Shown here one piece after another: positions 43,459 to 49,123 of a stretch of 53,902 bases of DNA. The notes under the pieces were generated by a model, which saw only the letters and a list, made by a program, of their open reading frames with translations, did not search any database and was not told the DNA's origin. A program made the position numbers and the translations under genes. The stretch comes from Bacillus sp. AZ43 (GTDB lineage Bacteria; Actinomycetota; Actinomycetes; Mycobacteriales; Geodermatophilaceae), in NCBI GenBank assembly GCA_004570425.1, contig SPQJ01000030.1, positions 1 to 53,902 on the forward strand, read 5' to 3'. Within the stretch, counting starts at the first letter, position 1. Every line of letters starts with the position of its first letter.

Positions 43459-44292
43459 GTGGACGGACGGCTGGTGCTCGGTGGCGCGCCCCTCGGCCAG
43501 CCGGGCGACGTCGGCCCCCGGCTGCGCCAGGTGCTGGCGTCGGCCGACGTGCTCGCCGTGGAGGACACCCGGCGGCTGCACCGGCTGGCCTCCGATCTCG
43601 GCGTCACGTTCGCCGGCCGGGTGGTCACCTTCCACGAGTCGGTGGAGCAGGCGCGGCTGCCCGGGCTGCTGACGGCGTTGAGCGAGGGCGCCACGGTGCT
43701 CCTGCTCACCGACGCCGGCATGCCGTCGGTCTCCGACCCCGGCTACACGCTGGTGCGCGCCGCGATCGAGGCCGGGGTGACGGTGACCTCGGTGCCCGGC
43801 CCCTCCGCGGTGACGACGGCGCTCGCGGTGTCGGGCCTGCCGGTGGACCGGTTCTGCTTCGAGGGGTTCCTGCCGCGCAAGGGCGGGGAGCGGCGGTCCG
43901 CGCTGGCGGCGCTGGCCGACGAGCGCCGCACGATGGTCTTCTTCGAGTCGCCGCACCGGCTGGCCGACGCGCTGCTCGACGCCGCGGCCGCCTTCGGCGA
44001 CGACCGGCCGGCCGCCGTCTGCCGCGAGCTGACCAAGACCTACGAGGAGATCCGCCGCGGCCCCCTGCGCGAGCTCGCGGCCTGGGCGGCGGACGGTGTG
44101 AAGGGCGAGATCACCCTCGTGGTCGGTGGCGCGGTGGCGGCTCCGGTGTCGCTGGAGCCCGCCGAGCTGGCCGCCGCCGTCGCCGCGGAGGAGGCCGCCG
44201 GCGCGACGCGCAAGGACGCCATCCGCGCCGTCGTCACCCGCACCGGCCTGCCCCGCCGCGCCGTCTACGACGCCGTCGTCCAGCACAAGTAG
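43459..44292 (+). CDS. rsmI: 16S rRNA (cytidine1402-2'-O)-methyltransferase
   Basis: A 277-residue SAM methyltransferase modifying C1402 in the 30S decoding centre. VLGGAPLGQPGDVGPRLRQV, ADVLAVEDTRRLHRL, LLTDAGMPSVSDPGYTLVRA, VPGPSAVTTALAVSGLP and FEGFLPRKGGERR are the RsmI signatures; CRELTKTYEEIRRGPL lies near the C terminus. GTG 43459 gives the usual length. Its TAG is followed after 7 nt by the left copy of the 49-nt palindrome. Confidence 0.96.
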   Translation: MDGRLVLGGAPLGQPGDVGPRLRQVLASADVLAVEDTRRLHRLASDLGVTFAGRVVTFHESVEQARLPGLLTALSEGATVLLLTDAGMPSVSDPGYTLVRAAIEAGVTVTSVPGPSAVTTALAVSGLPVDRFCFEGFLPRKGGERRSALAALADERRTMVFFESPHRLADALLDAAAAFGDDRPAAVCRELTKTYEEIRRGPLRELAAWAADGVKGEITLVVGGAVAAPVSLEPAELAAAVAAEEAAGATRKDAIRAVVTRTGLPRRAVYDAVVQHK

Positions 44293-44299
44293 CCCCCGT

Positions 44300-44348
44300 T
44301 GTGCGCTGATCCACCTCATTCGGCGGGGACGAGGTGGAGGAGCGCACA
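44300..44348. repeat. 49-nt palindrome, left copy, bracketing the DUF559 gene
   Basis: A near-perfect hairpin in which position i pairs with 50-i: TGTGCGCT pairs with AGCGCACA, then a 2x2 mismatch (GA opposite GG), then TCCACCTC pairs with GAGGTGGA, with a 13-nt apex. Flanking bases extend the outer stem by one pair. It shares 35 of 49 positions, ungapped, with the right copy. No T-tract follows. Confidence 0.85.
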
Positions 44349-44395
44349 ATCACCGTCCCTGTGGACAGCCGAGGCGGCGCGGGGCGACGTTCCGG

Positions 44396-44401
44396 CACGG
44401 T
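44396..44401 (+). promoter_or_regulatory. Possible -10 of the DUF559 gene (leaderless)
   Basis: CACGGT, exactly 6 nt before GTG 44408. It is weak at the first base but like the marR element TACGGT. No ribosome site is visible. Confidence 0.25.
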
Positions 44402-44407
44402 CTCCTG

Positions 44408-45277
44408 GTGCGACAGGCGGCCGTTCCCGAGTCCCTGCGCAATGACGTCTTCCGAGGATCGGAGGTCGTGGCGGCCGGCCTGCTCACCCGCCGCCAGCTG
44501 GACGGATCGACGTGGCGCCGCCTGATCCAGGACGTGTACGTCCACGCGGCGGTGCCCGTCACCCACCAGTTGCGGACCGAGGCGGCGTGCCTGCTGCTCC
44601 CGGACGCGGTGGTCACCGGGCGCAGCGCTGCCGTCTTGTGGGGGGTGGACCTGGCAGGTGCGGGGGACGACGTCGAGGTGACGATCCCGCCCGCACACGG
44701 GCCCCGGCGGCTACCGGGGCTACGCGTCCGGCGGGCCGATGTCCCGCCCCAGCACCGTAGGCGACGTGCCGGGCTGCCGGTGACGACGCCGGAGTTCACC
44801 ACGGTGTCCCTGGCGGCCTCGCTGCCCGGGGACGACGCGGTCGTGGCCGTGGACCAGATGATCGACTCCGGCATCGTGGACCTGGGACCGGTGCGCGCCC
44901 TGGCCGATGCGTGGCGGGGGTCGGGATCCGCGCGGGCGCGATCAGCGTGCGACCTGGCCGACGGGCTGGCCGGCTCGCCGCAGGAGACCCGGCTCCGCCT
45001 GCTGATCCACCGCAGCGGCCTGCCCCGCCCGGTAGCGCAGTTCCGGGTGATGGAGGGGGATCGCTTCGTCGCTCGCGTCGATTTCGCCTGGCCGGAGCGG
45101 AGGGTGATCGTCGAGTACGACGGGCTCTGGCACGCGGAGGAGGGGCAGTTCGCCAAGGACCGCCGGCGGCTCAACCGGCTGCGGGCAGCGGGATGGACGG
45201 TCGTGTTCGTGACTGCGGCGGACATGCACCGCCCCGTGGAGCTGATCGCGGCCATCGGGGCAGCGTTGGCGCGGTGA
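44408..45277 (+). CDS. AbiEi-like N-domain plus DUF559 (Vsr-like nuclease fold) protein
   Basis: A 289-residue protein. Residues about 10-55 (SEVVAAGLLTRRQLDGSTWR followed by RLIQDVYVHAAV) form the HTH-like N-domain of AbiEi antitoxin-type proteins. The middle (60-190) contains TGRSAAVLWGVDLAG and LRVRRADVPP as in that family. Residues 210-289 form DUF559, a Vsr/PD-(D/E)xK relative: D225 in RVDFAW, E236 and D238 in VIVEYDGLWH, then RRRLNRLRAAGWTVVFVTAADM split at the helix. A DNA endonuclease role is inferred; no AbiEii toxin gene is adjacent. The GTG start is the first available. The whole gene sits between two 49-nt palindromes. Confidence 0.82.
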   Translation: MRQAAVPESLRNDVFRGSEVVAAGLLTRRQLDGSTWRRLIQDVYVHAAVPVTHQLRTEAACLLLPDAVVTGRSAAVLWGVDLAGAGDDVEVTIPPAHGPRRLPGLRVRRADVPPQHRRRRAGLPVTTPEFTTVSLAASLPGDDAVVAVDQMIDSGIVDLGPVRALADAWRGSGSARARSACDLADGLAGSPQETRLRLLIHRSGLPRPVAQFRVMEGDRFVARVDFAWPERRVIVEYDGLWHAEEGQFAKDRRRLNRLRAAGWTVVFVTAADMHRPVELIAAIGAALAR

Positions 45278-45278
45278 T

Positions 45279-45327
45279 CGTGCGCTGGTCCACGTCATCC
45301 AGACGGTATGGCGTGGGTGGGCGCACA
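45279..45327. repeat. 49-nt palindrome, right copy, bracketing the DUF559 gene
   Basis: It begins one base after the DUF559 stop and has the same length and pairing register as the left copy. GTGCGC pairs with GCGCAC, and CCACG with CGTGG; several T-A pairs of the left copy are T-G here. The pair at positions 16/34 is C-G on the left and G-C here, a compensatory change. A G-G mismatch at 9/41 is kept in both copies. Confidence 0.85.
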
Positions 45328-45337
45328 ACGAGGGTGG

Positions 45338-46447
45338 TCAGAGCCAGCCGTTGCGCTTGAAGCCGCGGTAGAGGAAGAAGCAGGACCCGAGGATCACCAG
45401 CCACACCAGCAGGTAGCCGAACCGCCACTCCAGCTCCGGCATGTGCTCGAAGTTCATGCCGTAGATGCCGGCGATCGCGGTGGGGACGGCGATGATGCCC
45501 GCCCACGCCGAGATCTTCCGCATGTCCTCGTTGTCGGCCAGCGTGGTCCGCGCCAGCGACGCCTGCAGGATCGACGACAGCAGCTCGTCGAGAGCGGCGA
45601 CCTGGTCGCGCACCCGGATGGCGTGGTCCTGGACGTCGCGGAAGTAGGAGCGCATCGCCTCGGGCACCGGGTCGACCTGGCGCTCGGCCAGCTTCTGCAG
45701 CGGCAGCTCGAGCGGGGTCACCGCCTTGCGCAGGCTCATCAGCTCGCGCTTGAGCTGGTAGAGCCGGCCGATGTCGTCGGTCCGCTCCGGGCTGAAGACG
45801 GACGTCTCGAGCTCGTCCACGTCCTCGGTGACGGCGCCCGCGACGTCCACGAAGGTGTCGACGACGAGGTCCGCGACGGCGTAGAGGACCGCCGAGGGGC
45901 CCAGGCACAGCAAATCGCGCTGCTGCTCCAGCCGTGCGCGCAGGCCGGTCAGCCCCGAGTGCTCCCCGTGCCGGACCGTGATGACGTACGACGGCCCGAG
46001 GAAGACCATCACCTCGCCGGTGTCGACCACCTCGCTGGTCGCGGTCAGCTCCTCGTGCTCCACGTAGGTCGCCGTCTTGAGCACCATGAACAGCCCGTCG
46101 TCGTACTGCTCGAGCTTGGGGCGCTGGTGGGCGTAGACGGCGTCCTCGACGGCGAGGGGGTGCAGGCCGTACCGCTCGCTGATCGCGGTGAGCTCGCTCT
46201 CCGTGGGCTCGTAGAGGCCCAGCCAGACGAAGCCCCCCTCGGCGCGGGCCGACTCGAGCGCCTCCTCGGGGGAGACGGGCGCCTGCCGGACCCCCCGCAC
46301 GTACACCGCGCAGTCGACGACGACGTCCTCGCCGGCGGGCCGCGGCGGACGCGACCTGGGGGCGCCCGCGGGACGGGGCCGGAGCGTGGGGACGTGGGCC
46401 GGGGGAGGGCCCGCGGGCAGGTCGGCCGGCGTGTGGCTGTCGGACAT
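45338..46447 (-). CDS. corA: CorA family magnesium/cobalt channel
   Basis: A 369-residue channel. An N-terminal ~40 residues are Pro/Arg rich. The large cytoplasmic alpha-beta domain includes GGFVWLGLYEPTESELTAIS and HPLAVEDAVYAHQRPKLEQY, split by residue limits. It ends with the stalk helix and two membrane helices around the selectivity motif YGMNFEHMPELEWRFGYLL. The C terminus is basic (YRGFKRNGWL). ATG 46445-46447 follows GGGAGGTG with 5-nt spacing. It converges on the DUF559 gene; the right palindrome lies between their stops. It may share magnesium homeostasis with the CNNM/CorC pair at 21-24 kb. Confidence 0.95.
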   Translation of the reverse strand: MSDSHTPADLPAGPPPAHVPTLRPRPAGAPRSRPPRPAGEDVVVDCAVYVRGVRQAPVSPEEALESARAEGGFVWLGLYEPTESELTAISERYGLHPLAVEDAVYAHQRPKLEQYDDGLFMVLKTATYVEHEELTATSEVVDTGEVMVFLGPSYVITVRHGEHSGLTGLRARLEQQRDLLCLGPSAVLYAVADLVVDTFVDVAGAVTEDVDELETSVFSPERTDDIGRLYQLKRELMSLRKAVTPLELPLQKLAERQVDPVPEAMRSYFRDVQDHAIRVRDQVAALDELLSSILQASLARTTLADNEDMRKISAWAGIIAVPTAIAGIYGMNFEHMPELEWRFGYLLVWLVILGSCFFLYRGFKRNGWL

Positions 46448-46518
46448 CTGCCCACCTCCCTGGGGTCGGACCCGGTGCGATCCGGCGCCTGCAGCGTAGG
46501 CATGCGGCGCGCCGCGAC

Positions 46519-46552
46519 CCGTCACCCCCGATCCGTCACCCCCGCGGGTGAC
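46519..46552. promoter_or_regulatory. Direct and inverted repeat, possible operator between corA and the membrane-protein gene
   Basis: CCGTCACCCCCG occurs twice (46519-46530, 46533-46544). The second copy forms the left side of a perfect inverted repeat GTCACCC-CCGC-GGGTGAC (46535-46552). This lies upstream of both divergent genes. Confidence 0.4.
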
Positions 46553-47323: not shown

Positions 47324-49123
47324 GTGAGTGATCGGCACATCCTGACCGCAGTCGCCTGGCCCTACGCGAACGGGCCGCGGCACATCGGCCACGTCTCCGG
47401 GTTCGGCGTCCCCTCCGACGTCTTCAGCCGCTACCACCGCATGGCCGGGGACAAGGTCCTCATGGTCAGCGGCACCGACGAGCACGGCACCCCGATCACG
47501 GTCGCCGCCGACGCCGAGGGCATCACGCCCCGGGAGATCGCCGACCGGAACAACCGGATCATCGTGGGCGACCTGCAGTCGCTCGGGCTGAGCTACGACC
47601 TGTTCACCCGGACGTCGACGGTCAACCACGCGCGGATCAGCCAGGAGATCTTCCTCGGCCTGCTGAAGAACGGCTACGTCTTCCCGAAGACGACGCTCGG
47701 CGCGATCAGCCCGTCGACCGGCCGCACGCTGCCCGACCGCTACATCGAGGGCACCTGCCCGATCTGCGGCTACGACGGCGCCCGCGGCGACCAGTGCGAC
47801 AACTGCGGCAACCAGCTCGACCCGGTCGACCTGATCAACCCGGTCAGCAAGATCAACGGCGAGACGCCGAAGTTCGTCGAGAGCGAGCACTACTTCCTCG
47901 ACCTGCCGGCGTTCACCAAGGCGCTCGGCGACTGGCTGGCCACGCGCAAGAGCTGGCGCCCCAACGTCCTGAACTTCAGCGTCAACCTGCTGGAGGACCT
48001 CAAGCCGCGCAGCTACACCCGAGACATCGACTGGGGCGTGCCGGTGCCCCTCGACGGCTGGCGCGACCGGCCCGACAAGCGCATCTACGTGTGGTTCGAC
48101 GCCGTCGTCGGCTACCTCTCGGCGTCGATCGAGTGGGCCCGCCGCTCCGGCGACCCGGACGCGTGGCGGCAGTGGTGGCAGGCACCGGACTCCGACGCCT
48201 ACTACTTCATGGGCAAGGACAACATCGTCTTCCACTCCGAGATCTGGCCCGCCCAGCTGCTCGGCTACAACGGCGAGGGCGACAAGGGCGGCACGCCCGG
48301 TGACCTGGGCCGGCTCAACCTGCCCACCGAGGTGGTCTCGAGCGAGTTCCTCACGATGGAGGGCCGCAAGTTCTCGAGCAGCCGCCAGGTCGTCATCTAC
48401 GTCCGCGACTTCCTCGCCCGCTACGACGCCGACGCGCTGCGCTACTTCATCGCCGTCGCCGGCCCGGAGAACCAGGACACCGACTTCACCTGGGAGCAGT
48501 TCCGCCGGCGCAACAACGAGGAGCTCGTGGCCGGCTGGGGCAACCTGGTCAACCGGAGCGTCTCGATGGCCGCGAAGAACGTCGGCGCGATCCCGACGCC
48601 GGGCGAGCTCACCGACGACGACCGCGCGCTGCTGGCGACGACGTCCGGGGCGTTCGGCACGGTCGGCGAGCTGCTCTCGCGCAACCGGCAGAAGGCCGCG
48701 ATCGGCGAGGCGATGCGGGTCGTCGGCGAGGCGAACAAGTACCTGTCGGACCAGGCGCCGTGGAAGCTCAAGGAGGACCCGGCCCGCCGGGACACGGTCC
48801 TGCACACGGCGCTGCAGGCGATCAAGGACTGCAACGGCCTGCTGACGCCGTTCCTCCCGCACTCGGCGCAGCAGGTGCACGAGCTGCTGGGTGGCGACGG
48901 CGTGTGGTCGGTGGCGCCCGAGGTCCACGAGGTCACCGATCTCGACGACGGCTCGCCGTACCCGATCATCACCGGGCCCTACGACCAGGGGCAGGCGGTC
49001 TGGGCGTCGACGCCGCTGGCCGCTCCGGGCACCCCGCTCGCGCCGCCGAAGCCGATCTTCACCAAGCTGGACGAGTCGGTCGTGGAGGAGGAGCTCCGGC
49101 GCCTGGAGGAGGGCGGCGCATGA
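47324..49123 (+). CDS. metG: Methionine-tRNA ligase
   Basis: A 599-residue class I synthetase. [19 protein letters not shown] bears the HIGH motif and [13 protein letters not shown] the methionine pocket. The connective peptide has one four-cysteine zinc knuckle (CPICG then CDNCG); the KMSKS equivalent is KFSSSR. The anticodon-binding helical domain includes [10 protein letters not shown] and [11 protein letters not shown]. There is no C-terminal tRNA-binding (EMAP) domain. Likely leaderless. Its stop overlaps tatD by ATGA, giving a metG-tatD unit as in M. tuberculosis. Confidence 0.97.

What the first reader, a model, noticed from the sequence alone, without database searches (positions are those of the whole stretch)
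44300..45327. A nuclease-like DUF559/AbiEi gene bracketed by two equal-length palindromes with compensatory stem change
Seen: two 49-nt palindromes, 44300-44348 and 45279-45327, share 35 of 49 positions without gaps and fold in the same register (i pairs with 50-i). At pair 16/34 the left copy has C-G and the right G-C; pairs 8/42, 11/39 and 17/33 change T-A to T-G; pair 19/31 is A-C on the left and A-T on the right. A G-G mismatch at 9/41 is kept in both. So structure is conserved while sequence drifts. Between them is only one gene, with an HTH-like AbiEi domain and a Vsr-like DUF559 domain (D225, E236, D238). Known: hairpin-flanked single-gene units occur in REP/RAYT elements, and DUF559 relates to endonucleases. 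Inference: this is a small non-classical mobile or selfish cassette whose ends are recognised by its own protein, inserted between rsmI and corA. An alternative is that the palindromes are family-specific terminators or 3' stabilisers, since both follow stop codons (7 nt and 1 nt).
Basis: partly seen in the sequence, partly recalled or inferred. Interest (0 to 1): 0.8.

Follow-up and report, generated by a model that had tools for sequence, protein, structure and literature searches.

The report
Nuclease genes bracketed by matching palindromes
A soil bacterium's DNA-cutting-enzyme gene sits between two matching hairpin sequences, and related bacteria show the same arrangement with differing hairpins and further hairpin copies scattered through the genome, which looks like an unreported partnership between an enzyme and a family of repeats.

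Summary
The window comes from a Blastococcus-like genome (Actinobacteria; inferred from relatives). In 16 genomes of the genus, 31 of 64 AbiEi-DUF559 genes are bracketed by matched long palindromes, against 0 of 220 control genes. The layout is regular. Palindrome sequence differs between lineages, agrees between the two ends of a gene, and tracks the protein (Mantel p 0.0005, n 28). For three palindrome types tested by pattern, scattered copies concentrate in genomes whose own DUF559 gene carries that type; a fourth type and the window's own type fit less cleanly. This is REP/RAYT architecture, but the enzyme is a PD-(D/E)XK (Vsr/EDxHD-like) nuclease with an AbiEi-like region, not a tyrosine transposase. 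Relatives have the rsmI-corA site filled, inverted, decayed, empty, or holding a distant DUF559 gene with other palindromes. I favour a nuclease-palindrome partnership in which mainly the palindrome spreads, rather than a jumping gene cassette. Binding, cutting and movement are inferred. No structure could be predicted (server busy).

The parts
43459..44292 (+). rsmI, left neighbour, converging on the site
   Evidence: NCBIfam TIGR00096 194.9 bits, cut-off 167.9
44299..44349 (.). left palindrome (49-nt core 44300-44348 plus one more base pair), GTGCGCTG-TCCAC type
   Evidence: covariance model R1 match 67.6 bits, a training member
44408..45277 (+). AbiEi-DUF559 gene, GTG start, 289 aa, stop TGA 45275-45277
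   Evidence: start inferred from alignment with relatives
44510..44923 (+). AbiEi-like region (residues 35-172), proposed palindrome-binding part
   Evidence: PADLOC AbiEi PDLC02228 E 5.3e-12; binding role is inference
45077..45217 (+). DUF559 / Vsr-EDxHD-like nuclease domain (residues 224-270), D225, E236, D238, H242
   Evidence: Pfam DUF559; conservation; PDB profile hits 3hrl, 3r3p
45279..45327 (.). right palindrome, same type, 1 nt after the stop codon
   Evidence: R1 match 45278-45328, 60.1 bits, a training member
45338..46525 (-). corA, right neighbour, converging on the site
   Evidence: NCBIfam TIGR00383 206.6 bits, cut-off 200.75

Best explanation
The gene and its two palindromes are one member of a REP/RAYT-like partnership built on an unrelated enzyme. 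Shown: AbiEi-DUF559 genes in Blastococcus and in some other actinobacteria are often bracketed by a matched pair of palindromes (36-78 nt) in a regular layout; the palindrome type differs between lineages, agrees at both ends and follows the protein; copies of several types lie scattered between genes, often convergent ones, mainly in genomes that carry the gene with that type. Inferred: the AbiEi-like part binds the two inverted half-sites of the palindrome as a pair, and the PD-(D/E)XK nuclease nicks or cuts at or beside palindromes or at gene ends. Repair from another palindrome copy then spreads the palindrome and makes copies alike, so that enzyme and palindromes change together. The gene rides between two copies and is mostly inherited in place, with occasional loss, inversion or replacement.
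For: 31 of 64 versus 0 of 220 bracketed, Fisher p 7e-24. Among 36 DUF559 genes with a stem of 12 or more on both sides 28 match, and 15 of 16 with stems of 17 or more; only 80 of 1,128 pairs of palindromes (stem 17 or more) from one contig do. Co-occurrence, flank copies included: CATAGGTACCTATACNTGC 53 matches in G001, 0 in 15 others, and G001's gene of that type is at most 35% identical to the other 60 DUF559 proteins compared; GCTTTCGGTACCGAAAGC 108 forward matches in G006, 56 in G008, 8 or fewer in the other 14; GAGATCACGTGATCTCGG 40 strand matches in the window's genome, 10 or fewer in the others. Palindrome similarity follows protein similarity: Mantel rho 0.445, p 0.0005, n 28, and among 54 same-site pairs rho 0.64, within-site permutation p 0.0005. 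Some solo palindromes are absent from, or of another family at, the same site in relatives. Distant replicate: a Tsukamurella DUF559 gene has a near-identical 64-nt pair, and that palindrome matches 19 places (both strands, so perhaps half as many copies) in 8 records, all of Tsukamurella tyrosinosolvens, and no other of 72,556 plasmid records. Profile match of the nuclease domain to a mobile intron protein, PDB 3r3p. AbiEi proteins bind pairs of 23-bp inverted repeats 3 or 13 bp apart, 49 or 59 bp in all (PMC7319586, passages), a span like that of these palindromes.
Against: 33 of 64 DUF559 genes lack a detected matched pair at the threshold (some, such as L077 and L080, look paired by eye). 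G002 has 11 dispersed GAGATCTGC palindromes (my count), but none of the 5 of its 9 DUF559 genes whose flanks I tested carries that type. The window's own type is spread less cleanly: G002 has 7 places although its cassette carries another type, and G003 has 6 although it has no gene at the site. Some solo palindromes are shared between species at the same site (G002 and G003; G000 and G002), as plain inheritance would give. In Mycolicibacterium CBMA 226 only one solo copy was found. Comparisons of the two ends used genes chosen for matching ends, which favours my reading. Species relatedness was not controlled. No binding, cutting or movement was observed, and no structure prediction could be run.
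Confidence: 0.6

Rival explanations
1. The palindromes are the operators of an autorepressing AbiEi-like regulator; the nuclease domain does something else, for example repair or defence.
For: AbiEi and Rv2827c bind paired inverted repeats in their own promoters (PMC7319586, passages). The left palindrome ends a median 71 nt upstream of the homology start. The AbiEi match is clear.
Against: It does not explain the right copy at the stop codon, nor the dispersed copies, which often lie between convergent gene ends (16 of 20 in G001; 14 of 25 others), where no promoter is expected.
Confidence: 0.17
2. The palindromes are terminators or 3-prime stabilisers that became alike by gene conversion; the DUF559 gene merely tends to sit next to them.
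For: Solo copies favour convergent gene ends, often within 20 nt of stop codons. DUF559 genes sit between convergent genes in 26 of 55 cases versus 61 of 376 background pairs. Same-site palindromes of different families in different species could be a hairpin kept for its function.
Against: 0 of 220 control genes are bracketed by matched pairs. Three families concentrate in genomes with the matching gene. At most 3 T in the 9 nt after the stem in 20 palindromes of G001. Some orthologous convergent sites do without any palindrome.
Confidence: 0.12
3. A mobile cassette in the strict sense: the gene with both palindromes moves as one unit, for example as a free-standing homing endonuclease.
For: Presence, absence, inversion and replacement at rsmI-corA; on an rsmI gene tree the five intact cassettes need 4 changes; profile match to a mobile intron protein.
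Against: 57 of 61 DUF559 genes fall into 11 clusters of shared neighbours. Solo palindromes outnumber bracketed genes in G001, G006 and G008. The tree is weakly supported and 4 changes is no more than shuffled labels give (mean 4.4).
Confidence: 0.08

Closest known systems
REP/REPIN and RAYT (TnpA-REP) systems
   Same: Enzyme gene flanked by two palindromes that also occur dispersed in intergenic DNA; several distinct pairs in one genome; palindromes keep complementarity and are thought to co-evolve with the enzyme (PMC2817692 and PMC3116915, passages)
   Different: RAYTs are HUH tyrosine transposases; this enzyme is AbiEi plus PD-(D/E)XK with no transposase match. Actinobacterial hosts. No GTAG head on the window's palindromes.
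EDxHD / Vsr-like homing endonucleases (I-Bth0305I)
   Same: Nuclease domain matches PDB 3r3p, a mobile intron protein, E 9.5e-4 (that 3r3p is I-Bth0305I is recalled); PADLOC homing endonuclease model in 10 of 31 members; such an enzyme dimerises on a target of nearly 60 bp (PMC3943268, passages)
   Different: No intron or intein; flanked by palindromes; gene stands in intergenic DNA; no cleavage shown.
AbiE type IV toxin-antitoxin antitoxin (AbiEi)
   Same: AbiEi-like region; AbiEi binds paired 23-bp inverted repeats (PMC7319586, passages)
   Different: No partner toxin gene beside it (neighbours are rsmI and corA); nuclease domain added; palindromes on both sides and dispersed.
Vsr mismatch endonuclease and Caulobacter VsrA (DUF559)
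   Same: Same nuclease superfamily; VsrA contains a DUF559 domain (PMC12907096, passages)
   Different: Score far below the Vsr model cut-off (17.3 versus 97.85 bits); no palindromes or AbiEi part mentioned in the passages seen.

Membership tests
REP/RAYT | enzyme gene flanked by two palindromes | tested here: met
   31 of 64 genus genes, 30 of 80 named loci, partly the same genomes; 33 of 64 not detected
REP/RAYT | same palindromes dispersed in intergenic DNA of the genome | tested here: met
   one type in G002 without a matching gene among those tested
REP/RAYT | HUH / Y1 tyrosine transposase (IS200/IS605-like) | tested here: not met
   Pfam scan of 31 members at E 0.01: DUF559, MTES_1575, AbiEi_1, AbiEi_4 only
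REP/RAYT | GTAG (or GTRG) tetranucleotide head on the palindrome | tested here: not met
   not at the foot of the window's two palindromes; other families not tested systematically
REP/RAYT | coevolution of palindrome and enzyme | tested here: met
   Mantel rho 0.445, p 0.0005, 28 genes; same-site pairs rho 0.64; species relatedness not controlled
REP/RAYT | excision or transposition of the palindrome | tested here: inconclusive
   presence/absence and family differences at some orthologous sites, shared copies at others; no movement seen
EDxHD homing endonuclease | homologous nuclease domain | tested here: met
   3r3p profile hit E 9.5e-4, weak
EDxHD homing endonuclease | gene-less allele is cut and converted | not testable with these tools
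   needs biochemistry or crosses
AbiE toxin-antitoxin | AbiEi-like antitoxin | tested here: met
   PADLOC E 5.3e-12; 29 of 31 members match the same model
AbiE toxin-antitoxin | adjacent AbiEii nucleotidyltransferase toxin | tested here: not met
   flanked by rsmI and corA
Vsr endonuclease | score above the family model cut-off | tested here: not met
   TIGR00632 17.3 bits, cut-off 97.85
Intrinsic terminator | stem followed by a T run | tested here: not met
   20 palindromes of G001: at most 3 T in 9 nt, either direction; window copies are followed by ATCACC and ACGAGG

The most novel reading that the evidence does not exclude
Actinobacteria carry a second, independently evolved REP/RAYT-type system in which a nuclease of the restriction-enzyme fold, aimed by an AbiEi-type DNA-binding part, breeds and renews its own family of intergenic palindromes by cutting and copy repair. 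Many lineage-specific enzyme-palindrome pairs would be diverging side by side.
Probability: 0.5. Interest if true: 0.9.

Novelty: new variant of a known kind. Interest (0 to 1): 0.82.

Why it matters
How REP-type palindromes spread is called unresolved or poorly understood even for RAYTs (PMC3116915, passages; PMC8266576, abstract start in a listing), and one REP superfamily apparently lacks a dedicated enzyme (PMC3733652, passages). A non-homologous enzyme with the same genomic architecture would suggest that a nuclease-palindrome partnership is a recurrent way for short DNA to persist. The many natural enzyme-palindrome pairs make recognition directly testable. It would also suggest a function for DUF559/AbiEi genes now annotated as unknown or as antitoxins.

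Tried and rejected
Jumping cassette as the main mode: weakened by recurrent syntenic sites. Plain terminators: weakened by the controls. Vsr repair enzyme proper: far below the model cut-off. Rfam at gathering thresholds found only two tRNAs in the window. The search for related loci with the single protein found no relative. The pattern GTGCGCTGNTCCAC with one mismatch was too noisy across the genus, so a covariance model was used instead. A first comparison of copy number of the window's type between genomes with and without the gene (p 0.006) counted the copies at the site itself; without them p is 0.008. Phage and plasmid collections hold few relatives of the window protein (8 plasmid records, 1 phage record). 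Structure prediction was never accepted: the server was busy, so no fold search was made. Paper searches, judged from their listings, showed no paper describing DUF559 genes bracketed by palindromes; the library lacks most subscription journals. PMC3610266 was opened for three search terms and was irrelevant.

Full report
Observation. The two palindromes and their stated pairings are exactly as described, fold far better than shuffles, and lie between the stop of rsmI and the stop of corA, which converge, with one gene between them. The gene reads best as 44408-45277. DUF559 is supported by Pfam and the AbiEi part by PADLOC models rather than Pfam. D225, E236 and an acidic residue at 238 are conserved in all 31 aligned relatives, with H242 and D251 nearly so; in 44 relatives D225 is nearly invariant. 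The PDB profile search finds an endonuclease-like protein (3hrl, E 9.1e-5) and a mobile intron protein (3r3p, E 9.5e-4) over the nuclease domain.

The window's genome. It has eight DUF559 genes in all, this one included. The window's palindrome type is found at seven places in it: the two flanks and five solo places on contigs without a DUF559 match (both strands merged, my count; the fifth solo is weak). Another DUF559 gene, on contig C54, is bracketed by two palindromes of an unrelated sequence. That second type occurs at 11 places in this genome (my count of 40 strand matches, the two flanks included); among the other 15 genomes G009 has 10 strand matches, G004 6, four have 2 each and nine have none.

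Genus survey. Relatives' titles place the genus as Blastococcus (for example a contig of 950,647 bases is B. haudaquaticus DSM 44270). At rsmI-corA the 16 genomes show: gene with palindromes on both sides in the same orientation in G000, G002, G007 and G008 (right-hand copies of G002 and G008 read by eye); inverted in G014; frame-broken in G015; a remnant with one whole and one half palindrome in G011; cut off by the contig end in G010; a distant DUF559 gene (32% identity), inverted and with another palindrome type, in G001; no gene but one hairpin in G003, G004 and G006; bare in G005 and G009; an unrelated gene in G012 and G013 (the G012 copy has no Pfam or NCBIfam match).

Statistics. 68 DUF559-type intervals were found in 80 fetched regions; four truncated or remnant ones were dropped (L126, L129, L133, L137). 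Of the remaining 64, 31 have a matched pair at score 20 or more, versus 0 of 220 control genes from the same regions. The matching exceeds what genome-wide palindrome families give: 28 of 36 (stem 12 or more on both sides) and 15 of 16 (stem 17 or more) versus 80 of 1,128 pairs of stem-17 palindromes from one contig. In the 31 cases the left palindrome ends a median 71 nt before the homology start (range 49-172) and the right one starts at -3 relative to the stop (range -10 to 41). 33 of 64 do not reach the threshold. Of 80 named loci kept from a search with eight related proteins, 30 reach it, including Mycolicibacterium, Actinomadura, Pseudonocardia and Amnibacterium; some of these are the same Blastococcus genomes. 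Of 8 plasmid records with a relative I looked at three; two, Tsukamurella and Arthrobacter, have clear pairs.

Dispersal and specificity. CATAGGTACCTATACNTGC gives 53 matches at 34 places (my count) in G001 and none in 15 genomes. GCTTTCGGTACCGAAAGC gives 108 forward matches in G006 and 56 in G008, 8 in G007, 5, 4, 1 and 1 in four others, and none in nine; G006 and G008 each carry a DUF559 gene flanked by it, while the genes at the same site in G007 and G011 have the altered palindrome ACTTTCGGCGCCGAAAGT on one side. For the window's type, after removing the copies at rsmI-corA itself, genomes with the gene or its remains have 5, 7, 3, 5, 3, 3, 1 and 3 places and the others 2, 5, 0, 1, 1, 2, 0 and 0, one-sided p 0.008. 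This is a weaker case: the cassettes of G002, G014 and G015 carry other palindromes, and G003 has copies but no gene there. In 960 kb of G001 there are 50 palindromes of stem 17 or more, of which 13 or 14 are of the gene's type, its two flanks included.

Turnover at sites. The 70-nt palindrome at G001 C1:3146401 is absent from the same gap in G002, G003 and G007; G015 has only a short palindrome over the stop codons. Palindromes at G001 C2:862542 and 876715 are absent in G002 and G004 respectively, and those at G002 C6:46682 and 152370 have no comparable palindrome in G001. At other sites different species have different families: G001 619688 versus G002 and G003; G001 891118 versus G002; G002 C6:74999 versus G001; G002 C5:749015 versus G000. 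Some are shared: G002 and G003 keep the same type at one site, and G000 and G002 at another. Inheritance, gain or loss, and replacement therefore all seem to occur. These are the comparable sites among the sequences held, not a whole-genome count.

Coevolution. Of 32 genes with pair score of at least 16, 28 were used (L090 and L102 broken, L103 not in the protein set, L150 judged doubtful by hand). Palindrome similarity follows protein similarity (Mantel p 0.0005), also among genes at the same site (54 pairs, rho 0.64, within-site permutation p 0.0005) and only weakly between sites (324 pairs, rho 0.19). Ends of one gene resemble each other (median 0.62) more than those of other genomes at the same site (0.41) or elsewhere (0.19), and 17 of 22 genes exceed their same-site median; since genes were chosen for matching ends, this last comparison is biased upwards. 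Species relatedness was not controlled.

Mechanism. AbiEi-type proteins bind two 23-bp inverted repeats 3 or 13 bp apart (PMC7319586, passages), spans of 49 and 59 bp, close to the palindromes here (36-78 nt). Arms of several families are themselves dyads (read by eye). The simplest reading is that the AbiEi part holds the palindrome and the nuclease acts on it. Spread by break and copy repair would make copies alike in one genome, keep both gene flanks in step and let families replace each other at a site. These steps are inference.

Known systems. The arrangement repeats what was reported for RAYTs: always flanked by two REPs, with complementary changes and dispersed copies (PMC2817692 and PMC3116915, passages). 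The enzyme is unrelated, so this is not a RAYT but seems to work like one. Whether these genomes also hold true RAYTs was not tested. The paper searches listed under Tried and rejected showed no description of this arrangement.

Noticed in passing
G006, e.g. C3:117295-117380 and C6:13487-13538: Copies of GCTTTCGGTACCGAAAGC stand in tandem at a 34-nt step, two or three in a row, like the clusters known for REP elements.
   Followed up: no
G002, 11 places listed (e.g. C6:75002, C7:361407): A palindrome type with 11 dispersed copies but no DUF559 gene of that type among the 5 of 9 whose flanks were tested in this genome; possibly relics of an earlier gene type.
   Followed up: partly
G001 C2:542563 and 864849; 590187, 759008 and 929318: Further small palindrome families in the same genome, perhaps belonging to its other DUF559 genes.
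   Followed up: no
L036 and L040, rsmI-corA gap of G012 and G013: An unrelated gene of about 300 codons occupies the same gap, with no palindrome found at the threshold used; the G012 copy has no Pfam or NCBIfam match.
   Followed up: partly
L508 (plasmid record of Tsukamurella tyrosinosolvens NCTC13231): A record labelled plasmid carries gatA and gatC, so some of these records may be pieces of a chromosome.
   Followed up: no
window 44408-45277: The DUF559 gene has lower third-position GC (0.896) than rsmI, corA and the gene at 47324-49123 (0.962-0.982).
   Followed up: no
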